A DNA stretch of 64,000 bases from NCBI GenBank assembly GCA_035079385.1, contig JAVHKY010000067.1, positions 434,001-498,000 of the forward strand, given 5' to 3'. The notes under the pieces were generated by a model, which was given only the letters and a program-made list of their open reading frames with translations, did no database searches and was not told the DNA's origin. Numbering within the stretch: position 1 is the stretch's first letter; each line of letters starts with the position of its first letter. Below, piece after piece: positions 3,267-60,206 of this stretch. Position numbers and translations under genes: made by a program. The stretch comes from Aspidiotus rigidus. Taxonomy: Eukaryota; Arthropoda; Insecta; Hemiptera; Diaspididae.

Positions 3267-3271
3267 AGGAT

Positions 3272-3440: not shown

Positions 3441-3451
3441 CCCCCCCACAC
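3441..3451 (-). other. Polypurine tract of the copia element
   Basis: On the minus strand GTGTGGGGGGG lies immediately before the 3' LTR, the expected position for plus-strand DNA priming. Confidence 0.8.
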
Positions 3452-3591
3452 TGTGAACTTCCCTGAAGAAAAAAAATCGTCCTAGTCCTACGGTAGAAAA
3501 AAAACAAAACAACGAATCAAAAAAACAGACAACATTATTTAGCCTAATAAATAGATGGCACAAAAAAACAAAAGAGTAGGCCTAATACATC

Positions 3592-6500
3592 TTAACAAAT
3601 ACTGAGCATCTTTCTTAAAGGAGCGAATTTTGCAAGAACAAGACCCTTCGTGAATAAATCTGCAACTTGATTCTGAGAGTTAACGTAGGTTAATCGAATT
3701 TTTCCCGCAAGGACCATTTCTTTCACGAACTTGAATCGAACATCGATATGTTTAGACCGTTTCGACGTGATAGGATTCTCCGATAGACATATGACAGACT
3801 GATTGTCCTCGTAGATTACAACCGGAAGTTGAACATTGACTGAAAATTCCTTCAGGATCTCTAACATCCAAATCAGCGAATCGTGAATAAAAGATGATAA
3901 CGAAATGTATTCCGATTCAGTAGAACTCAGTGCGATTGAACTTTGTTTCTTCGACGACCAGTAAATCGCGTTTCCGTACAACAAAATAACGCTACCAGAC
4001 ACCGATTTTCGATCGGTCTTATCCGAAGCCCAATCAGCGTCAACATAACATTGCAAAATCTGTTGATTATTCTCAGAGGAAGAATACGTAAGTTTCAGGT
4101 TTCGAGAATGGAACACGTAGACCAGAACTCTTTTTAAATAATTAAAGTGTTCATTTGAGTAAGAATTCATAAAACGCGAGAAATAGTTTACTGCGTACGA
4201 AATATCTGGCCTTGTATTGATAGAGATGTACAAAAGACATCCTACCAGTTGTCGATAAGGCAATTTCGTCTCACTTTTCTCAGCAGCTGACAAATTGAGA
4301 TCTTTTTCGATAGGTGTGTAAACAGGTTTCGAATCTTCAACCCCGAATCGCTCGGCCACCTTACAGATAAAATTCGTTTGACTTATGGTCATTATTTTGT
4401 CAGCTACGTTATGTTCTATTTCCATTCCTAGATAACGTTTAACTTTACCTAGATCAATAATATTAAATCTTTTCGCGATTTCATTCTTAAATGCGCGAAT
4501 AAGTTCATCAGAATTTGAGGCGATCAGTAAATCGTCGACGTGAACTAGAACATAGATAACGTTATCTCCTATTTTCCTCGAATAAAAACAGAAATCTAAG
4601 GAAGATCTGACAAATTTTAACGAATCAATCATGACGGTATTAAAACATTGGTTCCAAATACGTGGAGCTACTTTTAGGCCATAAATTGCCTTTTGAAGCT
4701 TACATACCAGAGTTTTATTTTTACAGAATCCCGGTGGTTGCTCCATGTAAACATCATAATCCAAATCGCCATGTAAAAATGCGCTGGATACGTCCATCTG
4801 ATCAAGACTAAGACCACGTTCTACGGCGAGAGACAACATAACTTTTATCGTAGTCATATTTACAACTGGCGAGAAAAGTTGTTCTGGTACTTCACTCTCA
4901 TCGCATCCGAGCGCGACCAACCGAGCTTTCAGTTTTGTAGGTTTTTCCTGCAGGACCCACTTTGATCTCAAAATTTTCATACCTGGTTTTCTCTGTACCA
5001 GCTTCCATACTTCGTGCTGTTCCATCGTATCGATCTCGTCCTGCTTCGGTTTATGCCATTTCGGATCCATTTCGTTCTCCACAAGAAGAGCTTCAAAGCT
5101 ACAAAATGAAACTTCACTTTCATAATCGCCAAATCTTTCAGGTGGTTTCCTTACCCTTGTGCTTCGGCGTAACTCAGGTTCGTGTTTCTCTAACTCGTTT
5201 TCACTTTCTACGGTCTCATCACCGCTCACTTCGGTTTCGTCGCCGCTTTCAGTTTCAGTTTCCGCAGACCTGACAAAGTGATTATTTTCGTCACACAGAT
5301 CTTTATAAAATTTACCTTCATCGAAAATTACGTTTCGAGCAATACGAATTCTCTTTGTCTTGAGAATATATATTCGGTAACCCATCGGCGCGTATCCGAC
5401 CATTATTCCTTTCCATGTGCGGGAGTCGAATTTCTTACGTTTTTCCTTAGGAATTTGTACGTAGCACACGCATCCAAACGGACGTAACTTTCTGTAATTA
5501 ACTTTATTCTGAAACCATTCAAAAGCAGGTATCTTACCAGTAGAACGAGTAGTACAACGGTTTAGAGTGTAATTGGCGCACAAGATCGCTTCGGACCAAA
5601 AAGTTTTTGGTAACCCAGAATCCGATAGCATTGTTCTAGCCCGATCATCCAATGTTCTGTTCAGTCTCTCGGGCCCACCATTCTGAGCATGATTATAGGC
5701 GACAGTATTGAGTACTCTGATTCCTTTCTCTTTACAGAACTGAAGCAGATCTAAATTTAAAAATTCTCGACCATTATCGGATTGGAAAGAGGCTATTTTA
5801 GTGCTAAATTGAGCAGTTGCCATTGCTTCATACTCACGGAATTTCGAATAGACTTCGCTTTTCTTTTTCAGCAGATAAACAACACTGAAGTGAGTGTGTA
5901 TATCAAGAAAAGCGACAAAATATTTATAACCATCGTAACTCACCACTTCGGCTTCACATACATCCGACGCAACTTTTTCCAACGGACGTTTTGTTTTTAT
6001 TTCTGTTGTTCGATATGGGAGTTGTGTCTGCTTACCGCTAATGCACGGTTCACATAACGACGGAATTTCGCCTCGAAAATTGACCAATCCTTCTGCTCTC
6101 ATCTTTTTAACAGTATTCGAGTTCGCGTGTCCCAATCGGCGATGAATCGTCATGTAATCTAGGTTTGCCTCAGTCATACTGGCCTCTGTAGTGCAAACTG
6201 TAAAATTTATGAAATACAGATCATTTTTTACGAATCCGGAGGCTAGAAAATCTCCGTTCTTCACAATCTCTACAGAATTTTTCCTAAAAACAACGTCATA
6301 ATCTTGGAGGGTGACTCTTCGAATGCTCAACAAATTTCTTCTCAACTTAGGTACAAAAAGAACATCAGTAAATGTAACTCTTCTGCCTAAATTACTAATT
6401 AATTCTACATTACCGACGTGGGTTGCAGTTACGGTACTATCATCTGCGAGAAGGACCAAATTTTCTCCTCCAAGACGTCGAAGAGATGAAAAATACTTTT

Positions 6501-7509
6501 TCTCGTTGACCATGAACCTTGTACATGCCGAGTCCGTGACAAAACTCACGGCCACTTCCATCTCGAGAGCTTGTTCGACGTTCCCTGAGAATGAGGCAGC
6601 TTTCAACTTGGGTTCAGTGAGAAAGGACACATAACGAGGGTGCTTTTCACCATTCTCTTCAACCGTGTTGGCTTCACCGCTGGATTTTTGTTGAGCCCGT
6701 TTTCTTTCGTCGTTCCGTTTCTTGAAACATCGATTTTCAGTATGGTTGTCACGATCACAATAGTCACAGTGGAGTTTCTCCTTCTTACCTCCTTTCGATT
6801 TATTTGACTTGCTGGCCAGTTTTGACGAGGATTGCTTTGAACCAGTAAAATAAGCAGCAGCGTCTGACTCGGTGTTCACGTTTCTTCTCATTTTTCGTTC
6901 ATCCTTGCGCTTGAGATCAAAGTCCAAAAGACTACCTTTGACCGCTTCCATAGTGACTAAAGAGCTTTCATTGATTTCGCCGAGAGAGGTAATGACGGGG
7001 GCGAATTCGGAGGGGAGTGACGCTAGTAAGGTGACTACTGCCTCGATATCCTCGAACTTCCCGATCTTTCCTCCGCTCGATCTTATCTCCGCTATAATGT
7101 CATCAAATTCCTTGAAGAAGATTGACAAGTCACTTCTCCCATCGTACTGTAGATTCGCGAGTTTACGACGCAAGTATGCATGTTGCATGTAGCTGCACCG
7201 ATTAAAAGCTGTTTTAAGTCTTTTCCAGCACTCGTGAGAATTGACATCGACGGGAGCGTAATGCAAAAAAGAATCGGATAAATTTTCTATGATAATTCTT
7301 CTTGCGCGAGCATCAGCTTGACTCCAAGTGAGAGGATTTTTTTCCGTTCCAAAAGTCTTCTTCTTTTGTTCCTCTGTAGGTTTCTTGTCTACCATATCCG
7401 TTAGACCATCGCAAAGCAGTTCCGTATAGACTCGATTTCGCCATGCTAAGTAGTTCGAACCATCGAACCTTTTTATGCGAGAAACATTCATCACAGACGA
7501 CATTGCCAC
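3592..7509 (-). CDS. Copia-type Gag-Pol polyprotein, 1305 residues, intact
   Basis: A single uninterrupted frame encodes the retrotransposon proteins. In order: a Gag (UBN2-like) region from residue 1 to about 240; a CCHC zinc knuckle (C248, C251, H256, C261); an aspartic protease with the variant active site D326-S-A instead of D-S/T-G; an integrase with pre-integrase HHCC zinc region and core motifs FQSDNGREF and GGPERLNRT; a reverse transcriptase with DVSSAFLHGDL and the catalytic VHVDDLL box; and a C-terminal RNase H with YVDADWASDK and SSTESEY. The length is usual for copia. The protein copies the element RNA in virus-like particles and integrates the DNA. No stop or frameshift separates Gag from Pol, so their ratio may be set by splicing or processing, as in Drosophila copia (inference). 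Confidence 0.97.
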   Translation of the reverse strand: MAMSSVMNVSRIKRFDGSNYLAWRNRVYTELLCDGLTDMVDKKPTEEQKKKTFGTEKNPLTWSQADARARRIIIENLSDSFLHYAPVDVNSHECWKRLKTAFNRCSYMQHAYLRRKLANLQYDGRSDLSIFFKEFDDIIAEIRSSGGKIGKFEDIEAVVTLLASLPSEFAPVITSLGEINESSLVTMEAVKGSLLDFDLKRKDERKMRRNVNTESDAAAYFTGSKQSSSKLASKSNKSKGGKKEKLHCDYCDRDNHTENRCFKKRNDERKRAQQKSSGEANTVEENGEKHPRYVSFLTEPKLKAASFSGNVEQALEMEVAVSFVTDSACTRFMVNEKKYFSSLRRLGGENLVLLADDSTVTATHVGNVELISNLGRRVTFTDVLFVPKLRRNLLSIRRVTLQDYDVVFRKNSVEIVKNGDFLASGFVKNDLYFINFTVCTTEASMTEANLDYMTIHRRLGHANSNTVKKMRAEGLVNFRGEIPSLCEPCISGKQTQLPYRTTEIKTKRPLEKVASDVCEAEVVSYDGYKYFVAFLDIHTHFSVVYLLKKKSEVYSKFREYEAMATAQFSTKIASFQSDNGREFLNLDLLQFCKEKGIRVLNTVAYNHAQNGGPERLNRTLDDRARTMLSDSGLPKTFWSEAILCANYTLNRCTTRSTGKIPAFEWFQNKVNYRKLRPFGCVCYVQIPKEKRKKFDSRTWKGIMVGYAPMGYRIYILKTKRIRIARNVIFDEGKFYKDLCDENNHFVRSAETETESGDETEVSGDETVESENELEKHEPELRRSTRVRKPPERFGDYESEVSFCSFEALLVENEMDPKWHKPKQDEIDTMEQHEVWKLVQRKPGMKILRSKWVLQEKPTKLKARLVALGCDESEVPEQLFSPVVNMTTIKVMLSLAVERGLSLDQMDVSSAFLHGDLDYDVYMEQPPGFCKNKTLVCKLQKAIYGLKVAPRIWNQCFNTVMIDSLKFVRSSLDFCFYSRKIGDNVIYVLVHVDDLLIASNSDELIRAFKNEIAKRFNIIDLGKVKRYLGMEIEHNVADKIMTISQTNFICKVAERFGVEDSKPVYTPIEKDLNLSAAEKSETKLPYRQLVGCLLYISINTRPDISYAVNYFSRFMNSYSNEHFNYLKRVLVYVFHSRNLKLTYSSSENNQQILQCYVDADWASDKTDRKSVSGSVILLYGNAIYWSSKKQSSIALSSTESEYISLSSFIHDSLIWMLEILKEFSVNVQLPVVIYEDNQSVICLSENPITSKRSKHIDVRFKFVKEMVLAGKIRLTYVNSQNQVADLFTKGLVLAKFAPLRKMLSIC

Positions 7510-7710
7510 AAATTACGAGTACGTAAAGGATTTGTACGCCAAAAAAGGAATGTTCGAGTAAAAAAAACGTAGCTGTTTAAATTGCGAATAAAACGAATCC
7601 GTAAGAGGAAAAAAAACGGTAAAAGATTTTTCTCACATTTCAACGCTATACCGAAAAAAACGTGTCACATTTTGACCAAGCTAGAAAAGTTCATTCAATA
7701 GGCTTATTGC

Positions 7711-7724
7711 CTGGGCCCATAACC
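7711..7724 (-). other. Primer-binding site matching the initiator tRNA-Met anticodon arm
   Basis: Plus-strand CTGGGCCCATAACC directly abuts the 5' LTR. This string is the anticodon stem-loop of initiator methionine tRNA, so the element is primed by an internal half-tRNA, the classic copia arrangement, and not by the tRNA 3' end. Confidence 0.9.
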
Positions 7725-7893
7725 TGTTGGGTTTTGCTCGGTTCAGATAAAGCATAAACGAGAGATTACACGCTATAGACGATCATTATGTATTCGGACA
7801 ACATGCAAGACTATTCACAACGAAAAAAATATACATATTATTTACAGCGTGATTTACAGTGAACAGTGGTGCCATTTAAGTAGTAATTCAACA
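7725..7893 (-). repeat. 5' LTR of the copia element
   Basis: 169 bases, identical by eye to 3272-3440. It should contain the element promoter; I did not identify a TATA box with confidence. Confidence 0.97.
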
Positions 7894-7898
7894 AGGAT

Positions 7899-8160
7899 TA
7901 TTCTTTCTTTTTCTTCCAACTCCCTCGTCTGTTCTTCCGTGCCCTCCTCTTCTCTCCTGTTGATGATCGATCATGATCAAGGCCTACAGTCTAGCTGTGA
8001 AATTTTACATGATTCCTCCCCAATTTTTTTTTTTTTTTCTTTTGTTGACCAGGAAAATCTTTAAACCACCTGGTCTTGTTTTCTCTTTTCACTCCTCCGC
8101 TTTTTCTCTCTCTCATCATCCTTCTCCGTCTGTTCTGTTTGAAAACCTCGTCTACTAGTT
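7899..8160. repeat. Diverged tandem CTTCTTCGTCTG-type repeats (right of copia)
   Basis: Continuation of the degenerate array seen at 2880-3266, interrupted by the copia insertion. Units such as catccttctccgtctgttc recur. Confidence 0.45.
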
Positions 8161-21232: not shown

Positions 21233-23998
<2,766 letters not shown>

Positions 23999-42286: not shown

Positions 42287-45200
42287 ATGGTGACTATTTT
42301 TAGATTGATTTATGTCGATAATCATCAAAATAATTCTCGCGATATCTCATTTTTTTCGTTCATCTGCTTCCAGATAATACGAATTCAGTCGCAAGAGGGT
42401 ACTAAGCGTTTGGAAATAGATTCCAATGATTCAACCTCGAATCTTTACGAGAAGGTAAATACGTTCGGAAGATTCTGTAAATTTCAGTCCATCGCTGCTC
42501 TATTCCGCGATATTTCGGATAAAGCTCGACGTGTATTCATACAAGTTTTCTGATGTATCATAGGTGTACGGGCATTTCGCTTTAGCGAGCTACGCGTTTT
42601 GTCTGTTCAGAAGTCGAGGACAGAAAGATGAAATCAGATCCTCCGGCAGTCAGACTGTCTCGTCCATAGGTTTAAAACATGGTGATATGATTTATTTGGA
42701 ACCTCTGAATGGGGAAACAATATTCGATCACTCGACTCAAAGCCCTTTCAACGATGTTTACACGAAAAGCGCTCCGAGTACTTCTCGTAATTCTGCGGGA
42801 CATTCGTATTCGAATGGGCCCTCACACGCTCCAATGAATATCGTGTTTCCTAATAACCAAACCGTTGAAGATGAAATTGATCTACTCTTATGGAAGAGTG
42901 ATGGAAAAATCAAGAGACAGAAAGATCCCAAATTGTAAGTTTATCATTTCACACCCTCTAATTCGATCAACCCGAGTATTGATAAAAATCGTTTGATTGT
43001 AGCTGTCATCACGGAACCAAAGGACAGTGTGTTCACTGTTCGCCTTTAGAACCGTTCGATGATAATCATCTTCGCGAACATAATATTAAGCACATGTCTT
43101 TCCATTCTTATTTAAGAAAATTGACTGCTGGAGTCGATAGGTGAGTGTTGATCAATTTCGTAGATTAGACCATCTCACGTCCCAATGCCTATCAAATTTG
43201 ATTTCCAATTTCAGAGGAAAATTCGTTCTCTTAGAGGACGTAAGCTGCCGTATCAAACCAGGTTGTAAAGATCATCCGCCCTGGCCCAGAGGTATTTGTT
43301 CCAAATGTCAACCCAGTGCGATTACACTCAACCGACAAGTAAGAAAGATAGTAGAAAACTAAAACAAACTTTATTAGTCTGACGTTTTTTGAGTGGATGC
43401 TGGAAAAGCAATCAACTCTAACAACGATGCTGCCAATCGTTCCTCGCCATTATAATCACGTCTATTTCACCGATTTAGATAAATACAGAGGAATGAATTT
43501 TCATACCCACCTGTAAGACTGGTTCAATACTTCATCTTGAAATTCGAATGATTCGATTCCATCGAGAATCAGCAATCGAGTTCCACGAAGAATCATTCAA
43601 TGAATTTGACATTCTGGTGCATTCTTAGAAGAGGCTCAACTTACTGTTTATGTACTCCTGAAAAACTGTTTGTACCTAGGAAAAAGGAGTCATAAGAAAA
43701 ATATTGCTATCGGGGTCGAAAATATTCACTTAATTAGGTTGAAATATTCCTGTTACTGAAAAAGAACAAAAAAGATAGTTCTACTTGAGAATTGTGAAGT
43801 GTTTTCGATCATTCTCTTTTCGATATTCACATTTCCTTTGTGCAGTAAAATATAACATGAAGCGAAAAATTTGCTGGTCATACGTTCACTTCACTCGTCT
43901 CATAAAATTGTGCTCTCGTTAGCGAAATTTCCACTTACTAGTTCTTGATATTTATCTGACCCCATTACCACGTACGATTAATACGAAAAGCAAGAGCTTT
44001 GGTGCTCATAACAACGATTAGTATTTCGTCAATTCAAACGTCAGCTTTTCTGAAATTAATTCGCCGAAAGCGCAGAGATGAATTCTCCCATCAGAATTCT
44101 GATGATATAATTTATCCCTGAATCATGATTTCGTCTGCTTAGTAGATGTGATGCACAACTGTTGAACCGTGAAATAATCGCTAAATTTCGTTTCTCTTCA
44201 CAGACGTACAGACATGTAGATAATGTAATGTTCGAAAATTCGCATTTGGTAGAGAACTTCTTAAATTATTGGAGGTCGACGGGTCATCAGCGTATTGGTT
44301 ATTTGTATGGTAAATACGAAGCTCATACCGATGTACCTCTCGGTATCCGCGCCACTGTGGTCGCAATTTACGAACCTCCTCAGGTAAATTTTTTTTTTTT
44401 TTTTCTGAACTGATTCCAAAGAATACGAGCGTGTACAATGATGAGGTATTCCATGTCGTAGGAGAGCACTCGTGACTTCATAAAATTGTTACCAGACGAG
44501 AAAGAATCTGTGGTTGAAGAAATAGCTCAGAAATTAGGCTTGAAGCGTGTTGGTTGGATCTTTACCGATCTTATCGCGGACGATATTCAGCGTGGAACCG
44601 TAAGTTACCAGTATTTAATGAGCTACGTTTGTTTCTCCGCGAGAATAATGAACATTTGTTCGATAATCGCAGGTCAAGTGCGTCCGAGGAATAGAAAGTC
44701 ATTTCCTCTCCGCGCAAGAATGCATTATGGCGGGACATTTTCAAAATCTCCATCCTAATCCTTGTCGTTTTGCTCCTGGAGGTTCCTTCGGTTCGAAGTT
44801 TGTAACCGTTTGTGTCACTGGTGAGTTGACAATTTGAGACTCCAAACTAATTAAATGTTACGAAATGATCGTGTTTTTGAAAAAAATTTTTCTCGAAAAT
44901 TGTATCAATTGGAATTGATTGAAGTATGCTAATTAAGCCTGATGGACTGCTGGGCGAATGACCTCGCATCAAAATGTAATCAAATATATTCCCATTTCTT
45001 GTCCGTAGGCGATGCTCAAAATCAAGTTCATATGGAAGGTTACAGTGTCTCGAACCAATGTATGGCTCTCGTACGTGATGCGTGCTTGCTTCCCACGTTG
45101 GATGCTCCTGAATTGGGTTTCATACGGGAATCGAGTGATAAGCAGTATGTTCCTGATGTCTTCTACAAGGTAAGAACATAACTCAGTTTACGTTTTCGAT

Positions 45201-48200
45201 CGAAAGATTCGAAGGTTTGGGAAGTTCGTCTTGTCGGTTATTCTTTCGTTCTATAAAATTAATCTAGAGCGAGGCAATGCTGAATGAAGACATAAAATAT
45301 TTTTTTATATTCATAATGCGAAGGTCGTACTACTCGATACGCTACAGCTTCGTTCTTGAATCTCGACTTGGAAAATGACTGTAGAACTTTTAACTAATGA
45401 ATTTAATTATAAACGTGTATCGAAGAATTAAGAATTGAATTTCTGCTCCTCGTTATAAAATTTGAAAATACGACTTCCGTGCGATGGTTGTCAGCCGAAC
45501 CAGTAACAAAGGTCTGTTTGATGAATTGTTGGTCTCTGAATTGTTGTTGAAGATGACGGAAATATGAGAGAAATGGATTCTGTCATGGGATATTTTGTGT
45601 TGCAGTTCTTCCTCTGTTCACGTATCTGTACGAAGAGGGCTATGTTAGCAGACGTTGGTGTAAATTTTGAAAGCTTGACTTATTCGAAAATACTTCACAT
45701 CAGTAACAAAAGAAGAGATCGAATTTGCTCGTTTCGATCGGGTATTTTGATTGAGTCAGAGAAGACTTATTTTTGAGAGGTCAAATTGATGAGTTCCTGA
45801 TAATGACTAACGTAATTAAGTTTACTAATATTCATGCTCTAGATAGTTCTCTGAAATGTGGTGAAAGAAGTTAAGGATGTTAAAAGATACAGGAATTTGA
45901 CGCAATATTATTCAATCTGACTAGGATTGAATTTCGAAAACGAAATAAAGAAAATATATTCGGAAAAGTCGAGAATAAAATTTTTGAGAAAAAATTCACA
46001 AAATTGTCAAGAAACGAGAAAATTCCGAGTCAGCATAATAGACGGCCGGTTTCGACCCACAGTTAGAGATCATCATGTCCAATTTATAATTACATGTTAA
46101 CACATGAAAAAAATTATGAATAAAATTGATCCATCTCTTTTCGGATAATGTAAAAAAAAAATTGCGCAAGCCTTAGTTGTTCTTCTGATTTTTAGCACGT
46201 TAACTCGTTCAACTTGAATATCACAGCTTGATTTTCTGATTGACTTCGATTTTAATCATCGGATAAATTACGCGATTGTTTCTCGTCTCATTATCTCTTC
46301 TCTCGTTTACTGAGTCATTTTTCCCTACTGAGAATGAATTTTCTTCAGTTCTTATTCTTCGATTTTTCCACTTAACGGCTGATCATAGCTACCAATTTCC
46401 CAGTCTGAGATCGTTATAGGATGAAATAGAGATCGATTCAAATTATTTCTTGTCCTGTGTTGATAGAGGAGTTGTTCGTTGGGATTTGGGTGCGACGCTA
46501 TTCAAGTGTTGGAGATTATCCTTTATTTTTGAGAAAACGAATAAATTTAAGATAGTGGATTTCAAAATACTATGGAGTTGAAATTATCTTTCGACTGCCG
46601 TACAAAAAATAATTGACGTATATCGAGGATAAAATTGAGGAAAATAGGATTTTGGGCTTAATAAATTTGTCAGTGTGTGAATCAAATCATACCTTGTATT
46701 TTACAGGTGATAGTCATTAATCAAGTTTTCTAAGAAACAAACATTGTTATTCTGAAACCAACTTCATTACCAAACTGATCATTAAAAATAGTTTCTATAA
46801 TTGATCAATATATCTTTATTTACCCCGCTATTTTCTCAAAGAAGAAACGATTCAAGGTATTTTTATCGTGATCCAAAAAGTGGAAATGCGTCAATTATTC
46901 TTCGTACGGCAGCTGAACGGAGAGGCTTCGTGTACTTCTTATGGGGGTTACGGTCATATAGGCGCGGACGATTAGGCGCCGACGATTAGGCGCGGACGAT
47001 TAGGCGCAACAATCATTCAGACGCCGCATTCATTTGGACGCAGTGACGTATTTTTTGTAACTTGGTTCGCCTAAATGGAGTTTGATAAAAAAAATTCGAA
47101 GCCGTGTTCCCTCCTGCGGAAGTTGGAGCCAGCTTATTTCATTTTGCACAAAATGTATTACGACATGTTAAGGCTAATCGTTTACAGAAGGCTTACCAGA
47201 ATGATGCTCGTATCAATCAACATGTACGCATGATCATTGCATTGGCCTTTGTTCCCCCAGTTGACGTTATCCAAGCTTTTGAAAAGCTCGAAGGATACGT
47301 TGATGCGACACTTGAACCTGTCTTAGAGTACGTAGAAGACTAAACTACATTGGTCGAAGGCAGCGGAGAGGGAGAAAAACGCCTCAGTTTCCAATTACTT
47401 TATGGAATGTGTACAATAGAACACTCAGCCCCGGACGAATAATAGTGCTGAAGCGGGTCATCGACGTTTTCAAGCGGAGCTCAACTTGTCTCATCCATCC
47501 ATTTGGCGTTTCATAGATAACTGCGCACAGCGCAAAAAGCGAGAGATGTTGACTACGATCAACTCAAAGCCGGCTCCGAACCGACGGCTAAGAGACCTAA
47601 ATATATCAAATTAGATAGAAGGTTGAGGAAAATAGTTTTAGATTACAAAAATAGGTCAATTATCGAATATTTACGAGGTATAGCGCATAACGTTTGCCGG
47701 TGAACGTTATGAACATTGTAGCTCAATGAATTTTTAAAAATTGTTTCATTTTAATAAAAAAAATTAATTCGCGCCTAAGTGTTCTTGCGTCTACTTGAAT
47801 GGGCGCCTAATTGATTTTTCAGTTCTTCGCGCCTAATTGTCCGCGCCTAAACGTCGGCGCCTAAATGATACCAACCCCTTATGGATTCCGAAAGCTACTT
47901 CTGAAGTTCTGATCTTGTCTTTGAAATCTCTTGTAGTAAAAGCTCGATTTACTGTATTATCTCAATCAGATTCAGATTTTCTTTTTTCTGCACCTGATCC
48001 ATCATTATGCGTTCTGTCGTGTTTTGTTCATTTGTCAACACCTGCACGTGTTATCAAACGAAAAATGCTCTGAAACACGTTTTGGGCGATGAGTGAATGA
48101 ATCGAGCCTACTTTGATTTGATATTTCAATCCCTGATAAGAACCCTGTTTTCATTTTTATCTGTGTATGAAAAGATGTAGCGTGCTTCAATCAAGCGAAA

Positions 48201-51200
48201 TTCAAGTATTTAAAGTAGAAATCGGAAATGGTTCGTGTTAACAACGTAGTTCTAAATAATATACATCGTGTCTCGAACGTTGGAAATTTTCTCTAGATGG
48301 GATACTCATAATTGAAGAAAATAAAATCGATGTGCAGTTCTTACACTAAACGTTTCATCCTTCGACATCACATCAGTCGATGTTGGTTTGAAATTTCAGA
48401 AAAAAAAAAGTAGGCTAGAAAGTCTTGCCTGAATGGTGAAGTAACATCAAATCTTTGTGTTCACAGATCTTAATTTTAACGTGAACGTTAGTGAACCGAT
48501 TCTGTAGACTTGATAATAACGAAAACACCGATTGAAAGATTTTTTGAAGAAAGGATTAAAACTGCCTGTAGATATTTTCAATTTAATCAATATTCACCCC
48601 TTAAAAGAGCCGTGAGTGGGCTAATAAACAAGAATGTGATAAAATTACAACTTGATTTCCTTTTGAACGACCTTACAGGTGTAGGGTCGTGTTACCGATT
48701 AGGTCCAAGGGACCCGTGCCTCGGGCGCAAATTTTTTGGAAAAAATAACAAAATAAGCCGTGCGAGTAGCGACAAACGGACGCACGAATGATGCAGGAAG
48801 AAAAAAAAAGGAGAAAGTGTGCGACGCGCCCACAAAATCGAAATAGTGAAAGACAAAAGAGAGAAAAATTTACCCCACCCCCGACTATAAGGGCGCATTC
48901 AAGTAAGTGCCTTGGGGCGCGCAGAAGCTCAATCCGGCCCTGTACAGGTGGGTTCTCAGAACTAAACTCCCGCGTTATTCCGTTGGTTCGTGTATTAAAA
49001 TTCATCTTCTTTGTTTGTCTCTTTTTCAAACTAGATGATTTTTTTTTTTCAATCCGGGTACTCTCTTAACTCGAAAATCAATAATAGAATTAAACGCACA
49101 GGCCAGCTATTTTATTTTCTGTATGTTATTACATTAAAACGTAGATAAACTAAATAATATTCATAAATCACGTTAAATAAAAATGTTTATTAAACCCTTT
49201 GTATGTCAATTCAAAATTTTAATAATAATACCGTTTAACTAAAACGCCCACAATATTTTATCATAATAATAATCGTCATTAAGCAGGAATGAGGAAAAAA
49301 AAAGAATATGAAAGGAATTTTTTCTACAACACTAAAGGCAACTGCTTATTTACTAAGTAGGTTGCGTTTTGCTGAAGAAAATTTTCCTCCACTTTTTCTC
49401 GTACGGTTTCGTTCTAGTTTACAGAAAATAAGACGCTGATAGGGTACTAAGAGGATAAAAATAATGAATGAATATTGCATGATGATTACAAACATACGAC
49501 TCGGATTTTCGAATTGGATAGTATAATATTACTAAGTACCATAACATAAAAAATTGAAAAATAAATTCTGATCAAAATTATGGAATCACTTATCCGTACA
49601 ATCGAAAGAAGTAAATGACTATGGTTGAGTTGAAGAACACAATCTTGTTTTATAATGACAATCGGTTAAAATTTTCTTAGTTAAGACCTGAAATTAGAAT
49701 TACCTGAAAACACCAGCGTCTTAATGCGAAAGATAGCAACATTTTCTGTTTAAAAATATAAAAACTGCGCGATTCAACGACGGAAAATAGGTGAAAAACG
49801 CCCAGAATAATTAAACACAACTATTCTTGTTTATAATTCGAATTTTCAAAAACAGAATTCTTGACACGAGAGCGCGCAAATTTAATATTTCTAAGCAGAA
49901 TTTAAAACGATTTAAGATAAGAGGAAAACATTTTTCTTTAAGTATAGCGACGTAAAAATGAAAAAAAAAAGAAATTAAAAAGAAGGTAAAATCGGTGGTA
50001 CAGACGCAATACGATGATCTAATTCTTGTAACGTATAATCGAACGACAAAATGAATTCTTCTATAAATAAAAATGTGCCTTCGTTGAAGTACTTATAAAA
50101 TGGTGAGATATGTAGTACATCGAAATTTTAACGCTTTCTCAAAAAGAATGAAAATGAGAAGTTCGACTTGATTGTACAGCCTTAACTGGTATAAACTTGG
50201 TCGAAAATAATCGAATAAAATAAATTTAAATCGAAGTGAAATCGAGAGCGGAAAATGTGGTAAATAGGAATAACTTTGTATTCGCAATTTCATAATAATA
50301 ATGGCTATTAAATTCTCACATTAAGGAGTGAAAAAAGAAAAAAAAGAAAAAACACCGCGAAAAAGTACGATAATTCCCAACGACAATAATAATTATATCA
50401 TCTATTTAAAAAAAAAAAAAAAAAAAATACGCTAAGACGAATTTTTATTACGCATGGAAAAAAACTATACTTGGTAAAATACATATTACAAGTCACGATT
50501 CACGAACGTTTAAAATTTCCGAGAGAAAAAAAAAATTACCCTTATAACGTAAGGACATTCTTTCTATACAAAATGCGATCGATTTCTAAATTATTCGGAT
50601 ATACGTATTAAGCTTGATTCGGTAATTAGCAATATAGTCGCTGTTTAGTATTCGGATACGTCTGAGATCAATAAAATATTTTATTTTATTAATTATATAT
50701 AATATATCGTACGGATTTGCGATAAAGACGTTTTAAAACACTCACAATAACTAGACAGAGGAAGAAAGAGAAAAATAAAAATAAACGATGAAGAAAATTC
50801 ACAAAGAGAGAGGAAAAAAAAAGAAAAAGCTCAACAGCGATATCATCTAATAACGATAAAAAATTAAAATTATGAATAAGGGGGAAAAAATTCGAACCTA
50901 AGCTCGGCTCCGAAGCACGTTTTATAATTTGCCGCAACTTGCTATAACGATAGTTTTCGTGGGCTTTCCGGCCAAATCACCGAATGTAGCGATTTTTTCG
51001 ATCAAATCCAAACCCTCGACCACATGCCCGAAAATCGCGGTAAAGCCCTTCATCTCCTGCAGAATGACACGAAACTGCGATCCCACCATACCTAGACTGT
51101 CGTGTTTTTTCTGCGTTCGTCGCATACCTACTGCACCCCTAGTGGCTGGAAATTTTGTGTCGTCTGGTATAAAGAACCCTTCTTCGTAAATTGAACGACC

Positions 51201-54200
51201 TCCTCGTCCGTTGTTCAGCTCGAAGTCACCCGTTATGATGGACTCATTTGGCCAGCACTGAAATATCAAACACCCTTTATATCCAAAACCCATCTCACCG
51301 CTAGCCAGGGCCGAGAAATTGCGCACCATCTTTGGCGCCACGTCCGGTCTTGTCTCGATCAATATTCGGCCAAAAGGTGCACCATTCACTTCAATATTGA
51401 AGTAAAATATGACGAACGACGGATTTAAAGTTTGCATTGTGATCGCTGGTTGTGGAGGAAGAGGCTGCATGGCCGGGTTGAACGCCAACAACGTGGTCGC
51501 GCAATTTTCTACTGGACCGTACGGACTGGGTGTGATTGACGGCGATTTCACAGAGACAAATTCGATATTACCGAGACCATTTTGCTGCAAACTTCCTCCC
51601 TGTCTCTGCTGTTGCTGTTGTTTAGAAACCATGTGTCGCGAGTACAGCTGCGACATGCAGTAGTTGGCCAAAAATAAGATCGGATTGTTCAGCTGTGTTC
51701 CATTAGTTTGTTGCGTAAGCTGGGTACTCATGGCTGAATCGGGCGAGTTCAAGTTATCTAAAACGTGGCGAATTAAACTAAAATCGAAGACGACGTTTGC
51801 GTTACGTATTAAAGCATCCATACGGCACTGCATGTACATCTCTTGACACCTTGACTGCAGCTTCTGTTTTTCGACGACGAGATTTGTATACAAAAGCTGC
51901 ACGTCGTTAAGTTCGTCTAAACGCGTCAAGTCCACCTGGGTACGATTCAGTAGGGCGCGGGCCTCGTCCACCTCTGGAATCACGATTGAGCCGCTTTGCA
52001 GATCAGTTTCGATGAATGCTTTCAATGTGATACACGCCTCATGCACCTTCAAAAGAAATTGACGTTGTTGCGATACGAGACGTTGTACTTCATTTACGAG
52101 CTTAGCAATCGCTACAGTTTCTGTTTGTACCTGTGAATAGAGAAACTTTCGTTAATTATGATGAGATTGAGACCGTCGGTATCATTTTGTCGCAAAGAAA
52201 TTGTTTGCAAACGAGAAAGAGAGAAACAATTCACATACTTCGGATACGAGTTTTTCTTTGGCTTCATCTTGGGAAATGATTTGGTGCGTTATGTGCATCT
52301 GCTCTGGCGGTGTAGCGCACAGTCGACATATCGACACAAAACATGTATGACACCATAATTGCAACGGCATACTATGTGCTAGGCAGTTTTCGATCTGTAA
52401 TAATTGATGTAGAAGTATTGATAGTTAGTAATGGCGTCAATTTTACAAAATAATACAATTTTAGTTTTGAGTAAGGACTGCTCGTACACCAAAATTACAT
52501 TCTGAACCTAATTAGGAAATCAATTTTATTTTCTCACTTTAATGGACTTATTTTTTGACCACGTTGGGAAGACCCATGTTGTTTCGCTCATAATTTCAGA
52601 TCTTTTTCCGTCAAATAAATCGATGATCTGCTTTCATGATCTCGAACGTTAGGCTAAACCTCGACCACAAATAAAACCTTTCGACTAATGGCAAACAATT
52701 TCGTTTTACTTTCGATATGACTCTTGATAACTAAGATCTTGATGAGAAGGAAAAGTTAATAAGTGACAAGCCTGTCTGCTCAAACGAGATTCCTATACTT
52801 AATCTGTAATTATTGTACTTGGGATTTTTTTCAGAATTCAATTTTTTTCTTTTTCACTTTGAAAGTCTTTACGAATGAACTTCCATTTTAATTATGTATG
52901 AGTAGTTGCGTGAGAGAAGTTATTGAATGTCGACTGGAATTTACACTATCAGAAATTTAAAATAGCTGTTAAGCACCTGGAGATGATCATAAAAAAATGA
53001 AAAGTAGTGAATTCAGGCCTCAAATTCCAAAATTTCAGCTGCAAGGTTGGCGAAAATGGTATAGTGGGTTCATTGCACCATTTTTTTTTTTTTTTTTTTT
53101 TCTTCATTATTTTGGTATAATGAGCAATAATGACAGTGAAATAAACAAGTTTTCCGAAAGATTAACAAGACAATAGCCACAGACTGAGTTTTTTTCTTCA
53201 GCCGAGTGAAAGAAAAATTGTCCCTCTGATATCAGACAATTTGTGTTCGTGGAAAATAATAATTTCCCCCGCCTTCTCTCGAGCCTTCTATTTTTAGTCT
53301 CTCATTGAACGTGGATTCTGCTTGCAAAAACGCGGGAAAACGTTAAGTCACGATGCAGTTCGAAGAACGCGCAAACGCACGAGGGACGCCAATCTCACTG
53401 AACAATATCCCCCCTGTACTATCGGTATTATAATTTAACCTGCGAAAATTATCATCGTTCTATTTTTGACAAGTGTTTGAGATTGCTTCTTATTGGAAAT
53501 TTTGAACGTGAGATTTTTTATTTCTCGTCGACGATTCTGAATGCGTACCTTTTAAGACTAAAAATAGAATAAAATTTTGAGCGCACGAGAGTTGAGAGCA
53601 ACGTAAGAGAGAGGTAAATTTGTAAGCGTTACAAGTGTCGAGAGGAATATGAAAAAAGAGGAAAAATACTTTAAAATAATAGGAACACACTTTTTTATCC
53701 TTATCCGGTGGTATAGTCTCGTGATTGACAGTAGGAACGTTGTTACCTCCGTTGATGGAATTTTTTATGTTGGATAAGCTAGTTGACAATACCAGGATAG
53801 GATTGTAGGTTGGTAACACTTCCGGATCTTGCTCCTCCAGCTCGGTTCTTTTCCAACAATTAACACAGAACACTTCCATGCCCTTCATCATGGTCGATCT
53901 TATGCACGACAAACAAAAGTAATGCTTGCATGTCAGAAGTTTGGGCACGGAGTCGATGTGATTGAATTTCTGCTTGCACAAATTGCAAATAACTAGTTCT
54001 TCGATGTCCTTTATGTTCGTGAGGTCCATCATCTGTATCATCTGCAAATATGATATTAATTTCAGATTATTAAAACAGCTCGCGGACTTGTTCTTTCCTA
54101 CAAACGTAATTTCTCTATCGTAATCAAAAGCGTGCAAAAATCGTTGAAAATAGTTTTCTTTTTACCTTAGGCAGAGACGTATTTTTACTCTCAAACCAAA

Positions 54201-57200
54201 CCATTGTTACAGGATAGATAGCGATACTCGATTTAATAAATAATAGTAATAATAAACGAATTACGTTAAAATTAAAATTGAATGTTTCTTACGATTTAAA
54301 AGGAAATAAGAAATGAAAAGTAAACTTAGGAAATATTTTTTATAGATATATATTTACACACTAAGGGAACCCACGTGAAATTTGCGAGACGATAACTAAT
54401 TTACGTTGAGAATGAAATTAATATACGGATACTTAGAAGTTACTTTTAAAAAATACGAAAATCTTAATTTATACGTGGAATATTATAGAGAGGAAAAAAT
54501 CACAACGATAATTCGTAGAATGGAAACGCTTAAAATTGTATTTACATTCGATTACGTTAAATTAGAGAGAACGAAAGGAACCGTTTACGTTAATATTTTG
54601 AAATTTGAAGATTTTAGCGAATGAAAACTAGTTATGATACGAATTGATGAAGCCGAGTATTGCAAGATTCACGCTTGATAGAGATGATATTCGTATACCG
54701 TCAGACTTCTTTCAATCACGAATTAAATGCTCGTCTTCAATATTATCACTTAGTTTTCGTCGAGTATTTTCTAGTGACTCGGTTTCGCTGATTAACTTAC
54801 CTGTAAGGTAAACGTTACAAATTAATGTACAGCTGTTGAATTAAAATACTCGCGTAACTAAGTTTTCGCGCGTTTCTGCACTGTAAACAGGAACTAGAGT
54901 AGAGTTGTGGGACACGTATGTTATCTACATACGAGCGATTTCAAACAACGGAAACTTAAGTTCATTGATATCGCATCGAAAGTAATTATGTTCCTCGTGT
55001 GGGATGTTCTCATTTCACTTATCAGTAATATCAGAGTTGGCCTCCTACCGCCATTATCACGCGTTTAGGAACATGAAATTTTTACGCAGTACACGATGTC
55101 AAATGATGGCGGCATTAATCGAATAATGAACTTTGGAAAGAGAAATGATAATATTTGAAATTCGTTAATCCAGAACGTTTGCCCTGGATAAACGAAGATA
55201 AGAATGAGATTACGTCAGAATTAGTTTTTCTTCAACAAAGTTGTCATGTTTCCTTATCGAGCTAGTAGAGATGAGTAAAGGATTGGATATTGATGGAAAG
55301 TTTAGTTAAAGTATTTTCAAGTATGAAAACTTACCTTTTCGAACGTCGTTATAACAGAATTCGGAAACAATGCCTAACAAGTTGCATCGACTCGTGCTTT
55401 GTATTGTGAACGTGAAGTAACATTCTCTACTGAATTCATCGAATGTCGAATATCATCAAATACATTCGATGGTAATTAATAACGAATAACATTTACTTTC
55501 TTACGAGAAAATTCAAATGAATGCATCGAGTAGTGGTGTTACAAAGAGTTTGGTTTCAGTGTTTGAAGGAGTTATTATCGAGATCTGTACGATAGAGCGA
55601 TTGAGCTGTAAGTGGAAACACATTCGAATTCAACGATATTCGCATTTTTACTATTAATTGTAGCTTAAATAATAGTTAAAACAGTAACGTAAACAAAATT
55701 CGTACATCGAGTTGTTAACAGTTACAACTGTTTTCTTTTTCAAACGGTTTATGGCGTATCAGAATTTTACTCAAGGACTCGTGTTGTTGTTGAGACTCTC
55801 TCTTGCTATTCTGCTTTTTATCGTCTGTGAGATGCACAGTGCCCGGTGTTGAGAGAAAATTAGAACTTTTCAAGTTTTGGTTTCTCCTTATACGCGGCGA
55901 ATAATTGAAAATTCTCGGATGTTTTTGATTCGTAACATCGTTAAATTGATATTATTTTTCGTTACAAAAGATATAATTCGAATTTTCCTCTCAAGTAAAT
56001 CGCAATAGAATTGACGTGTATTTACGGAATGGCGAATGGCGACGCTTGATTCGACAATGCCTCGACATTTATTGGCTTTGTTCTATTTCTCGTTCGTGAT
56101 TCGACCAATGGCGTTTCTACGTGCTCTCTGTGTACGTGTGAAGTTGGATAACGTGGTTGCATAAACGTGCTCTCTGCCTTGCGAAGTTGAATTGACGTAA
56201 ATCCAAATCAACGATCAGGCAAACTGTATCTTTCAATCGATTGAGAAAATATAATTTCTTCCTGATCGTTGATTCGGATATACATTAATTCAACGTTGAA
56301 CGGACGTCTTTGTAATGAAGAGCATCGCTACAATGAACACAAACGTGTGAATAGTGAAAGATTGTTCTATTTTAATTTTATCGTACTCGTTGTTCGATAC
56401 GAATATACGATGCGTTGTTAGCTTCGTGTGAGAGCGAATCTTGTAAAGTTTTCATTATTTTAATTAATTAGATGACCCTAGCTCATTGTGAAATTATAAT
56501 AATAAGATTGCCGATGTACGTGCAGTACGGTAGATTGCGAATGACACGGATAATTTGAGCGGGTAAATTCTTCGAAAATTTGAACCGAGTAAAGCTTTCG
56601 AAGTTCCGCGAGTTCCGTCGAATCTGTGGTATGATTTCGTAGGTCGTTTTCTAGCGGTTAGCGCGCTGTTTCTCGAAATCGTATCCATTCCCGGGCTTTC
56701 TTCTTGTTCGTTACTTTAAAATTTTTGAACTTGTCATCAGACTACTGCACCGGCGCCTGTATTGCACTCGTTTTACACATCCACACTCTCTGTTCAATGT
56801 TCAGCAGGTAGTGAGATGGAGAGGAAACGAAAAATTATTCATTCATATATACCTTCTGAAACCTCCTCGTGCGCGTATTAAAATTTTGGTACGCTACTTT
56901 CGTCAAATCAATTTTTTAAGGGGAAGATGAGCTCTCGACAGTGGATTAAGCTTACTGTCGGAATCAAGATGAATGCGATTAATTTTTTCGTCATTATTAA
57001 ATTATGACTCGCCACTTTAGGTTTTCATTTTCCAAATAGTAGGCTACTCTTCGTCGGATCCGGGGATATCTACCTACATGAAAGTCCAAAAGTGGTGCTT
57101 TAAAGTAGAAACGAAATTTTTGGTGTGTCGAATTATCTTCAGGTTTTAGATAGGTAGGTATATGAAGAGAAAGTGGTTGCGAATCAACAGTATCGAAAAA

Positions 57201-60200
57201 TCGTATCATTCTATTTAAATATATCGCATCAAAATTGGAGTCTTATTGGATACAACGAATGGTTTCTATTTTTATTCGTAATGCCCTTTTCAAAAATATT
57301 GGGTTACAATTTTTCTTCCAATAATTCCTCATTTTATCGAAAAAAATTGGAAGTTTGTAAAGAAAGTTTCGAAATTATGAGTTGTGTAATTTTCTTCAGA
57401 TTATCAATTGATAGAAAAAAATCACACTGACACAATGGATAGTGGGAGCTCAAAAGGATAAATATTTTATTTTTCTGTGTCGGCATCAAACTTTTATTCA
57501 TTTTGATGTGAATGATAAATTTGAGCTAATTTTTACGATGTAGGCCTACATAACAAGAATATTCGAAGAATGTACGTTCGTATATATTTAGAAAAAAAAA
57601 AAAAAAAACAAAACTTCATTGTTGAACTTATCGCAGGAAATTGATGAGCAAACGATGATTATATCAATTTATCGTGTTTTAAAGACGATGAGAAAATTCT
57701 TTGAAAACTATGTATATGTGAGGCGATTTAAAAACCATACCTAAAACTCATTTCATTTTTTTTTTCTTGCATTTTCAAATAGAGGATAGTTTTCTGAATC
57801 TACAAAAAATTTTCCACATGGGTTGAAAATTCTCCGAGACATGATCTTTCGAAGTTACAACCTTTAAAAAGTAAATTCTGAGAAAATTGGAAAAAAGTTA
57901 GGTACCTACTGAAAGTTTGTAACTGAAAAGAAATTAGGAGCGAGTTTAGGTATGGTTTCTCAGATCGCCTCACATATTTTGGATGGACCACTATTAAGCA
58001 TAACATTGGTAGCAAATTCAGTCCTGAGAAATGAAGAAAAAAAATATATATAATTGGAAGATAGATTTTATAGTTGGAAGTGAAGTATTGAAATTAGCGT
58101 AGAAATTACTGGAAAGAGTGAATCCATCAGAAAATTCTAAAGAAGGGAGGGAAGGGCTATGTTTAGATTTCTAAATGCAACTTTTCCATGTTGAAGTAAA
58201 TTTTCTAAGAAGTTTCTGTATTCTAGAACAGAATTCCTCTTTCTGTACATTTGCGGTAGCTTTTTTCCTTATCAGGAAATTTCCTCTGTGGGGGTTATTT
58301 TGAAAAATTTGCCGTACGTCGTTCTCCGTCGGGCAAGAACTGACCCAGCCAAAATTTTTTCGAACTCAAACTTCATATAGTCGATGGTCAAATTTTTTTC
58401 AAGTTCAATATATTTAAATAACTCGAAATGTGGATCAGAAGGAGACCTACATATAATTGTTGTACTTCGAGGTAAGGCCCAGTAGCCTATCCTCTTTCCA
58501 TTTTTTTTTTTTTTTTTTTTCCCGTACATAATTATATTTATTTTTTTAGTAATTTTTGGTTAGATGTAATAATAAAAAAAAAAAAAAAAACTATTGTATT
58601 CTTCTGTATGACTCCAGGTAGTTTTTTCTTTTCCATTCAAATATGAAAAATAAAAAAGATTTATTCGCTAAAATAAACTTTTTGCACGCCAAAAATTGGT
58701 TTTAGAATACTGTAAGTATGTTTGCTTTTCATTGAGGACTTTTCGAACAATGGGGGAAAATATTCTTTCCCGTATTCAGTAGTGAACTCTATTATTATAT
58801 GCTGTAGAAGTCATATTTTGTACAGCCAGATAATATGTCACTCTCTGTTCATTCCTTTAAACACATGATGGCTAATTTGAGGTTGTTCAAATATTTTTTG
58901 GGTGTATATCAGCAACTTTGAGATTCCTCAATATGTTGTTGTATTATGGCTTTGAGACTTCTTGAAGCTCTGTGATAAGCTGTAATAATCATTTACAAAA
59001 TATTAACGAGTAACCTGTTGACATGTATGTGTCTTTGGGCTGGTGGTCAGTCAGAAATTTGCGTCACGTTCTATAACGTCATCAGTCACCTTGATCTACT
59101 TTAGGATCGCCTTCATTATAATAAGCCTTACATTTTAGGCTACTATTGTTGGAGTGTAGCTTACCGATTTATCATCTCACAAATATGAAATACCAAAATT
59201 ATACAAAGCTTGATGTAACGCTCACGTGAGAAACTATTGGTCTTAAAGATGATGAAAAATATAAATTTTGCCTTTGCGCGCTGTCTGTATTTCTTCCTGA
59301 AGTAAATTTTATCAACTGACTCATTTTCCTGAAAGTTATAGTAGATTTATAAACCTAATATGCAGCATACTAGACTTCTACTAACTGGACTGCTGCAGTA
59401 ATTTTAGATTTCATTAAGACCTAATGGAATGAAGTTGCTATACATCATATTTGCTTTCAGGAGAAAGATAAATATGGAAATGAGGTATCCAGGTTGGCGA
59501 GACCCCTTCCCGTTGAATATTTACTGGTAGATGTGCCGACGTCAACGCCTCTCACTCCGCAATTCACTTTTCCCATCAATTACAATAATGGAGTACAATT
59601 TCCAGTTGAAAATAGGTAAGTTTCACTTAACTACCAACCTACGGAACGTAATGCATGTGGGTTAATTTGGTTTTCCCATCTTGTAGATTGATCGATGGTC
59701 ACGTCCAAGACTTCAATTCGCTCGCTAATTACTTGATGCAGTTTTCAAACGAGACGTTCCCGGACGCTGTATCGGATTTCCATTTGCTGTTGTACTTGGC
59801 GACAAATACAATCGTGCCTCTGAAAGTGAGCCCTTATATTAGTGTGAAGCAATCTCGGAAGCATGTTATAAACGTGTGTTATTGTTATTTGTTGAAGGAT
59901 CACTTGGATCAGTTGTTGGAAGCGATTCGCACGCGAGATACGGTCACCATAATGGATTGGAAGAAGTCGGAGCAGTGGGCTACGCTCGAACAGCTGATAT
60001 TGGCATCCTATAGTTCATCAAAACGTCGCTCCTCAAATGCGAATAGTAGTGATACGAGTATGTCAGCGTCAAGTACTCCTGGTCGCGAACCTTTCGATTC
60101 GTTTCCTTCGTCTTCGAACGGTCAACCTTGGACTTGTCCGCATTGCACTTTTCTCAACAATCCTGTACTATTCGCCTGTGATATGTGTAACTTACCTCGA

Positions 60201-60206
60201 TCCTAA
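42287..60206 (+). CDS. NPLOC4: NPL4 (nuclear protein localisation 4 homologue), 648 residues with a 14.3-kb intron
   Basis: Cofactor that, with UFD1, recruits p97/Cdc48 to ubiquitinated proteins for unfolding. Coding exons: 42287-42289, 42374-42454, 42564-42934, 43003-43140, 43215-43338, 44204-44383, 44462-44599, 44673-44820, 45009-45169, 59461-59615, 59687-59825 plus 59898-60206; all phases agree. Order: N-terminal ubiquitin-like region ([20 protein letters not shown]), the NPL4 zinc region (C153, C161, C164; later [14 protein letters not shown]), the MPN-like NPL4 core ([42 protein letters not shown]) and a C-terminal NZF finger (C626, C629, C640, C643 with the T-F and M residues used for ubiquitin binding). 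The length matches insect and human NPL4 (human about 608). The start is the least certain part: ATG|GTGACT gives MIIRIQSQ, but the following 84 bases are also open. Intron 9 contains a gene on the other strand. Confidence 0.95.
46041..46078 (-). other. CCGGTTTCGACCC-type motif resembling a hammerhead core
   Basis: The minus strand reads ATGATGATC, a short loop, GGGTCGAAACCGG. This resembles the CUGANGA...GAAAC core found in Penelope-like elements and retrozymes. The first C of CTGATGA is not in place and stem II is weak, so it may be only a relic. Confidence 0.3.
46939..47883 (+). mobile_element. MULE-type DNA transposon remnant inserted with TTATG duplication
   Basis: TTATG occurs at 46939-46943 and 47879-47883. 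Between them, 46944-47878 has inverted ends starting GGGGTTACGG (left) and GGGGTTGGTA (right, reverse complement). Next come subterminal tandem units GGCGCGGACGATTA, three on the left and related CGCGCCTAA units on the right. The interior encodes the C-terminal part of a MULE/FLYWCH-type transposase with frameshifts. MULE duplications are usually 8-10 bases, so the 5-base match is short. Confidence 0.75.
47104..47720 (+). pseudogene. Frameshifted C-terminal fragment of a MULE-type transposase
   Basis: 47104-47343 reads [17 protein letters not shown] and [16 protein letters not shown], typical of the MULE transposase found in many arthropods. After a stop the similarity continues in a second frame (YIGRR...[14 protein letters not shown]) and then a third ([18 protein letters not shown] and [10 protein letters not shown]), ending at a degraded EYLRGIAHN near 47690. 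The catalytic DDE core is missing, so the copy is dead. Confidence 0.8.
48674..48950. mobile_element. hAT-like MITE with perfect 8-base target duplication
   Basis: TACAGGTG is repeated at 48674-48681 and 48943-48950. The 261-base element between begins TAGGGTCG and ends, as reverse complement, CAGGGCCGGATTGAGC, the common hAT terminal pattern in arthropods. No real coding capacity; the overlapping open frames on both strands are shadows. Confidence 0.8.
50680..50690 (-). terminator. Two overlapping poly(A) signals of the RING-cyclophilin gene
   Basis: The minus strand carries AATAAAATAAA about 235 bases past the stop codon at 50922. The position fits 3' end formation; usage is inferred. Confidence 0.45.
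50922..54204 (-). CDS. RING - B-box 2 - coiled coil - cyclophilin-like protein, 584 residues, nested in NPL4 intron 9
   Basis: Exons: 54204-54166, 54041-53691, 52394-52239, 52130-50922; all phase 0. The RING is C3HC4 (C32, C35, C51, H53, C56, C59, C72, C75), as in E3 ubiquitin ligases. The second zinc site is a complete B-box 2 (C134, H137, C145, C148, C153, C156, H164, H167). Residues 183-290 look coiled coil, then a Gln-rich, low-complexity linker. Residues 418-584 are a cyclophilin fold: [37 protein letters not shown] and the end [10 protein letters not shown]. The residues matching human CypA R55, F60, M61, Q63 and F113 read Q, E, S, I and R, and W121/H126 are also absent, so isomerase activity is unlikely. 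The RING+B-box+coiled-coil+cyclophilin order equals primate TRIMCyp. The donor after residue 130 (AAAAAA|GTGTGT) and the short first exon are the weaker parts of the model. Confidence 0.85.
54205..57717. other. Remaining part of NPL4 intron 9 upstream of the nested gene
   Basis: Should include the promoter of the minus-strand RING-cyclophilin gene just right of 54204. I see no coding exon. A miRNA-like hairpin lies at 56186-56294. Confidence 0.4.
56186..56294. ncRNA. Candidate pre-miRNA-like hairpin
   Basis: The arms 56186-56219 and 56261-56294 pair over about 34 bases, with GTTGAATT at the base and a perfect 14-base block (AATCAACGATCAGG) near the loop. One G-U wobble and three mismatches separate them, which is more like a miRNA precursor than a transposon palindrome. 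The loop is about 40 bases. I do not recognise the mature sequence, and expression is unknown. Confidence 0.35.
57718..57973. mobile_element. MITE copy 1 with GTGAGGCGATYTGAGAAACC-type ends
   Basis: Inverted ends GTGAGGCGATTTAAAAACCA and (reverse complement) GTGAGGCGATCTGAGAAACC, continuing ATACCTAAACTCG. The flanks ATAT on both sides (57714-57717 and 57974-57977) could be a target duplication. 256 bases. A second copy is at 62504-63067. The ORF fragment [11 protein letters not shown] in both copies comes from the shared terminal repeat. Confidence 0.8.
57978..59460. other. Last part of NPL4 intron 9
   Basis: No gene supported. Long T and A runs lie near 58499-58520 and 58574-58590. Confidence 0.4.

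What the first reader, a model, noticed from the sequence alone, without database searches (positions are those of the whole stretch)
50922..54204. TRIMCyp-like gene in an invertebrate: RING, B-box 2, coiled coil and cyclophilin in one protein
All eight zinc ligands of both the RING and the B-box 2 are visible, followed by a coiled-coil-like stretch and a C-terminal cyclophilin fold joined in frame. In primates this order arose by retrotransposition of CypA into TRIM5 and makes a restriction factor. Here the last exon encodes coiled coil, linker and cyclophilin together. Some insect genomes may hold related RING-cyclophilin proteins, so novelty must be checked; convergence with TRIMCyp is the attractive idea.
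Basis: partly seen in the sequence, partly recalled or inferred. Interest (0 to 1): 0.78.

Follow-up and report, generated by a model that had tools for sequence, protein, structure and literature searches.

The report
Insect-wide TRIM–pseudo-cyclophilin gene in mealybug
This is a mealybug copy of an old insect gene that joins a TRIM-type ubiquitin-ligase front end to a cyclophilin-shaped tail; the combination was already reported in the fruit fly, and the tail has lost its enzyme pocket, so it is probably not a TRIMCyp-style virus blocker.

Summary
The gene is real: RING, B-box 2, helical region, linker and cyclophilin in one minus-strand frame. The start is probably in exon 2 (568, not 584, residues); exon 1 matches no homolog examined. 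It is the mealybug member (86% identical to Planococcus citri LOC135845415) of a gene named in ten insect orders in capped hit lists. One locus was found in its genome, on two contigs 99.8% identical. The novelty idea fails: Sardiello et al. 2008 reported tripartite motif plus cyclophilin in fly CG5071 and called it convergence with TRIMCyp; I could not align CG5071 itself. The TRIMCyp analogy is weak: the cyclophilin is the most conserved part, yet its proline/cyclosporin pocket is replaced by other, nearly invariant residues (R55Q, F60E, M61S, Q63I, N102H, F113R, W121E). Most likely it is an ancient TRIM protein whose non-catalytic cyclophilin reads a constant cellular partner (inferred). 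I saw no paper on the lost pocket in nine searches. The gene lies antisense in a 14-kb Npl4 intron.

The parts
   Evidence: open with a GT donor, but residues 1-16 do not align with P. citri, which starts at MMDL; 21 of 26 A1 proteins start near the same point
53691..54041 (-). exon 2: likely start codon (54032), RING C3HC4 (residues 32-75 of the 584-aa model) and linker
   Evidence: AG/GT borders; ligands conserved; 92% identical to P. citri residues 1-120
52239..52394 (-). exon 3: B-box 2 (C134 H137 C145 C148 C153 C156 H164 H167)
50922..52130 (-). exon 4: most of the helical region (about residues 172-291, the first few in exon 3), linker (to about 420), cyclophilin (423-584), stop
   Evidence: helices in the model of the P. 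citri ortholog, numbering shifted by 16
50925..51410 (-). cyclophilin domain (residues 423-584) with non-canonical pocket (F472 Q473 W475 E478 S479 I481; K524 H525 D526; R536 E541 M542 T546)
42374..45181 (+). Npl4, 5' exons (UN_NPL4, zf-NPL4, NPL4 profile positions 1-88 and 126-179); approximate outer limits
59425..60206 (+). Npl4, 3' exons (NPL4 profile positions 173-275, RanBP-type zinc finger below its cut-off); the cyclophilin gene lies antisense in the intron before them

Best explanation
It is the mealybug member of an ancient insect TRIM-class gene (RING, B-box 2, helical/coiled-coil region, linker, cyclophilin). Shown: the architecture, its presence in ten named insect orders, a single locus found in this genome, and a cyclophilin fold whose catalytic and cyclosporin-binding residues are mostly replaced by other, nearly invariant ones. 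Inferred: the helical region dimerises it, the RING recruits an E2, and the non-catalytic cyclophilin uses the remodelled pocket face (E60, S61, K/R101, H102, D103, R113, E121 in CypA numbering) to hold a constant cellular partner for ubiquitination or scaffolding. It would then be neither an isomerase nor a fast-evolving capsid sensor.
For: Gene model and domains. Homologs: by my count 84 of the 120 listed rows cover at least 95% of the query; the others are fragments or, in Diptera, rows whose best local piece is mainly the cyclophilin. RING, B-box and cyclophilin motif in this order in 169 of 201 listed proteins. Cyclophilin is the most conserved part: median identity to the window 0.75, minimum 0.72, against 0.57 RING, 0.57 B-box, 0.48 coiled coil, 0.38-0.40 linkers. 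In 120 homologs E60, S61, I63 and R113 are 120 of 120 and Q55 119 with one gap. FQCWxxES[IV]ITGD occurs in 190 of 201, two carry variants, nine lack that part; the canonical motif occurs in 0 of 201 and matches PPIF as control. Mean entropy at 14 pocket positions 0.040 bits against 0.539 for the rest of the domain; 1 of 10000 random position sets is as low. Of six other cyclophilin loci fetched from the same genome, four show FHR...Q.GD; L005 printed only a later piece and L006 nothing. Davis 2010 (passages): Arg55 is called the invariant catalytic arginine, and SDCCAG-10, with Glu at position 121, neither bound cyclosporin nor was active.
Against: RING profiles are below Pfam cut-offs here and seldom found in homologs (at most 7 of 26), and the last Cys pair lacks the C-P-x-C proline common in active RINGs (recalled), so ligase activity may be absent. 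Two pocket-region residues, G72 and Q111, are kept. The full-length model is poor (mean pLDDT 61.8) and the cyclophilin model is under 50 at residues 108-118, part of the pocket. Davis 2010 suggests that inactive cyclophilins may still bind proline peptides. Strong conservation alone does not name a partner, and none is known.
Confidence: 0.6

Rival explanations
1. An insect TRIMCyp: a restriction factor in which the cyclophilin binds capsids of retroelements or viruses and the RING triggers their disposal, independently evolved.
Against: The pocket that TRIMCyp uses is changed and nearly fixed in its new form. The cyclophilin is the slowest part, the opposite of an arms race. One locus found, no expansion.
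Confidence: 0.1
2. The cyclophilin still works as a proline-peptide binder, with or without slow isomerisation, through a reshaped pocket.
For: Davis 2010 reports binding of a standard substrate by some divergent human cyclophilins without detected activity (passages); the fold is kept; Q111 and G72 are kept.
Against: Most residues lining the pocket differ, several to charged ones, and the stretch from GSQF to FG is 13 residues instead of 16 in PPIF.
Confidence: 0.2
3. A mis-joined gene model: separate RING/B-box and cyclophilin transcripts.
For: No RNA-seq was available here.
Against: The P. citri protein joins the same parts with gapless junctions, as do many other listed insect proteins; the exons stand in the same order at both places in this genome.
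Confidence: 0.01

Closest known systems
Drosophila CG5071
   Same: Tripartite motif plus cyclophilin, reported by Sardiello et al. 2008 (passages read)
   Different: Orthology is inferred and not tested: no drosophilid name appeared among the listed hits, although tephritid flies did, so the fly gene may be strongly diverged
Planococcus citri LOC135845415 and other insect entries named uncharacterized, TRIM5, TRIM13, TRIM37 or PPIF
   Same: Same gene; 86% identity to P. citri over 97% of the query
   Different: Only automatic names were seen; no function given
Primate and rodent TRIMCyp (TRIM5-CypA)
   Same: Domain order RING, B-box 2, coiled coil, cyclophilin
   Different: TRIMCyp arose by recent CypA retrotransposition (passages) and its antiviral activity is reversed by cyclosporine (rodent case); here the joining is old, the cyclophilin divergent and the pocket changed
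Zebrafish ftr52 (finTRIM with RanBD/CypA)
   Same: Another independent TRIM plus cyclophilin (passages)
   Different: Vertebrate gene with a RanBP2-like tail
Human SDCCAG-10 (CWC27), PPIL4 and PPIL2
   Same: Cyclophilin domains with changed pocket residues; SDCCAG-10 has Glu at position 121 and no activity, PPIL2 no tetrapeptide activity, PPIL4 (not tested) lacks Arg55 (passages)
   Different: No B-box or TRIM coiled coil; PPIL2 has a U-box (both recalled)

Membership tests
TRIM/RBCC | RING zinc finger with eight ligands | tested here: met
   112-115 of 120 homologs keep each ligand, the rest gaps; but Pfam RING scores are below cut-off here and RING profiles reach E<=0.001 in at most 7 of 26 homologs
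TRIM/RBCC | B-box 2 after the RING | tested here: met
   116-117 of 121 sequences keep each ligand; zf-B_box at E<=0.001 in 26 of 26; below cut-off in the window protein
TRIM/RBCC | coiled coil after the B-box | tested here: inconclusive
   helices 156-211, 218-234, 240-275 in the P. citri model; no dimer or coiled-coil test
TRIM/RBCC | ubiquitin ligase activity | not testable with these tools
   needs assay
Cyclophilin | cyclophilin fold | tested here: met
Cyclophilin (active PPIase) | Arg55 and the other active-site residues | tested here: not met
   activity itself not assayed
TRIMCyp | cyclophilin part is a recent CypA retrocopy | tested here: not met
   32-47% identity to other cyclophilin frames of the genome; shared by many insect orders
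TRIMCyp | CypA-type pocket residues that bind the capsid loop and cyclosporin | tested here: not met
   residues replaced; binding itself not assayed
TRIMCyp | RBCC part derived from TRIM5 | not tested
   no tree of RBCC parts was built
TRIMCyp | antiretroviral activity | not testable with these tools
   needs assay
CG5071 orthologs | one-to-one orthology with the fly gene | not tested
   fly sequence not obtained; domain order agrees with the published description; no drosophilid name among the listed hits

The most novel reading that the evidence does not exclude
Early in insect history a TRIM ligase gained a cyclophilin whose enzyme pocket was then converted into a fixed, non-catalytic recognition surface for a constant partner: a pseudo-cyclophilin reader in a ubiquitin ligase, kept almost unchanged in the insect orders seen here.
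Probability: 0.4. Interest if true: 0.5.

Novelty: new member of a known kind. Interest (0 to 1): 0.3.

Why it matters
It shows that TRIM plus cyclophilin also exists as an old, conserved insect gene and not only as recent antiviral fusions in vertebrates. The nearly invariant, non-canonical pocket gives a testable hypothesis: a cyclophilin fold reused as a binding module in a ligase. It also warns against reading function from domain order alone.

Tried and rejected
Rejected: recent lineage-specific fusion (homologs in ten named orders); gene-model artefact; retrocopy of one of the genome's own cyclophilins (identities). Considered: an intron inside the cyclophilin of midges. Of the nine listed homologs without the pocket stretch, six (P0191, P0192, P0194, P0195, P0196, P0197) end at or soon after ...FGSLCTG inside the cyclophilin, which hints at an intron there; not followed up, so the intron-free cyclophilin in the window does not prove retrotransposition.

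Led nowhere: range outside insects. The three protein searches list only the best 120 of 306, 198 and 155 hits, and only the candidates sharing most words were scored. No non-insect name was among the listed rows, but the unlisted hits and the many unnamed ones were not seen. Fly CG5071: P0152 was the query in the hope that it was a fruit fly; its closest named relative is the midge Polypedilum (71% over 49% of the query), and no drosophilid name appeared in any of the three lists. That counts somewhat against simple orthology with CG5071. PMC2447506 is held with abstract and references only. FBgn0039348, which I recall as fly Npl4, gave no paper. The rows shown for the full-length model cover its cyclophilin only, so similarity of the front part to TRIM structures was not tested. 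In the first position table six RING positions were mis-numbered; one search corrects them. MAFFT and HMMER place residue 121 differently (Gly; Glu by the register, used); neither is Trp, His or Tyr. For 57 further copies no attempt was made to date the fusion by a tree.

Literature: ten searches were allowed, nine used. Passages found by terms were read in PMC2533329, PMC6829134, PMC3166285, PMC3137616, PMC6677749 and PMC2911226, and in PMC2447506 the abstract and references; other papers were seen only as listings. None of these passages mentions the changed pocket of the insect gene; that is no proof of absence.

Full report
What is there. On the minus strand of the window four open stretches with GT-AG borders (54204-54166, 54041-53691, 52394-52239, 52130-50922) read as one 584-residue protein. 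Pfam finds a cyclophilin domain at 425-582 well above its cut-off, and RING and B-box profiles below theirs. In 26 homologs the B-box profile is matched in all 26 at E<=0.001, the commonest RING profile in 7. The eight zinc ligands of each finger are present and conserved. The Planococcus citri protein starts at the equivalent of M17 and 21 of the 26 proteins of alignment A1 start within two residues of that point, so the start codon is most likely at 54032 in exon 2 and the protein has 568 residues. Five of the 26 carry other N-terminal extensions, so exon 1 is unsupported rather than excluded.

Who has it. A search of 5.8 billion proteins gave 306 hits, of which the best 120 were listed. Names among them cover Hemiptera, Orthoptera, Phasmatodea, Hymenoptera, Neuroptera, Coleoptera, Diptera, lice and Odonata; a bagworm moth (Eumeta, Lepidoptera) appeared (assignment of genera to orders is recalled). 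The closest is Planococcus citri LOC135845415, 86% over 97% of the query, so the window is probably from a mealybug near it (inference). Of the 201 different proteins listed show RING, B-box and the cyclophilin motif in this order by regular expression; 12 lack only the RING motif, 9 lack only the cyclophilin motif, 8 have the cyclophilin motif alone, 2 the B-box alone, and 1 lacks only the B-box. In the window's own 441-Mb assembly the exons occur at two places, this contig and a 28-Mb contig, which match over 9.9 kb at 99.8% with one mismatch and four gaps. That looks like an uncollapsed allele, so one locus; a very recent duplication is not excluded.

Already in print. Sardiello et al. [quoted passage not shown] The two other papers found for CG5071 name it only in a table or a supplement legend: as a cyclophilin-family isomerase in a section on single-wall-sensilla-enriched genes and as a fruit-fly RING gene without human ortholog, with a LINE-derived stretch in exon 1. 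I could not align CG5071 itself. Against simple orthology, no drosophilid name appeared among the listed rows, though tephritid, syrphid and mosquito names did. Either the fly gene is strongly diverged, or it was lost in the capped lists, or it is a separate case.

How it probably works. The RING would recruit an E2, the helices would pair two chains, and the cyclophilin would bind something; all three are inferences. Because the cyclophilin is the slowest part of the protein (median identity 0.75 against 0.38-0.57 elsewhere) and its pocket face is nearly fixed, the partner is probably a constant cellular one. A capsid sensor of the TRIMCyp kind uses the CypA pocket and would be expected to evolve fast; neither is seen. 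No experiment on function was found in the passages read.

Surroundings. Npl4 exons lie on the plus strand before (to 45181, NPL4 profile position 179) and after (from 59425, profile position 173), so the gene sits antisense inside one intron of about 14 kb; profile positions 89-125 were not found as an exon among the frames scanned. From memory, not from a call, fly Npl4 has the FlyBase number next to that of CG5071 (FBgn0039347); if so the neighbourhood may be ancient.

Verdict. What is worth keeping is the nearly invariant, apparently non-catalytic pocket of an old insect TRIM-cyclophilin.

Noticed in passing
window 42374-60206 (+): Npl4 (p97 ubiquitin cofactor, function recalled) with the TRIM-cyclophilin gene nested antisense in its 14-kb intron.
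   Followed up: partly
window 3592-7512 (-): 1306-aa open frame of a Ty1/copia-type retrotransposon (gag, integrase, RVT_2); similar peptides at 3129-3485 and 7723-8064 suggest its terminal repeats.
   Followed up: no
window 21233-22339 (-): Intron-free 368-aa protein kinase frame (Pkinase E 3.6e-72), by recall MAPKAPK2-like; gene or retrocopy not decided.
   Followed up: no
G000 C67 434001-498000 (window) and C3 around 28.07 Mb (L001): The locus is present on two contigs, 99.8% identical over 9.9 kb: probably an uncollapsed allele.
   Followed up: partly
window 46801-47343 (+): Short open frames that look, by eye only, like remains of a transposase; two of them gave no Pfam match.
   Followed up: no
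homologs P0191, P0192, P0194-P0197: Six frames end at or soon after ...FGSLCTG inside the cyclophilin, hinting at an intron there.
   Followed up: no
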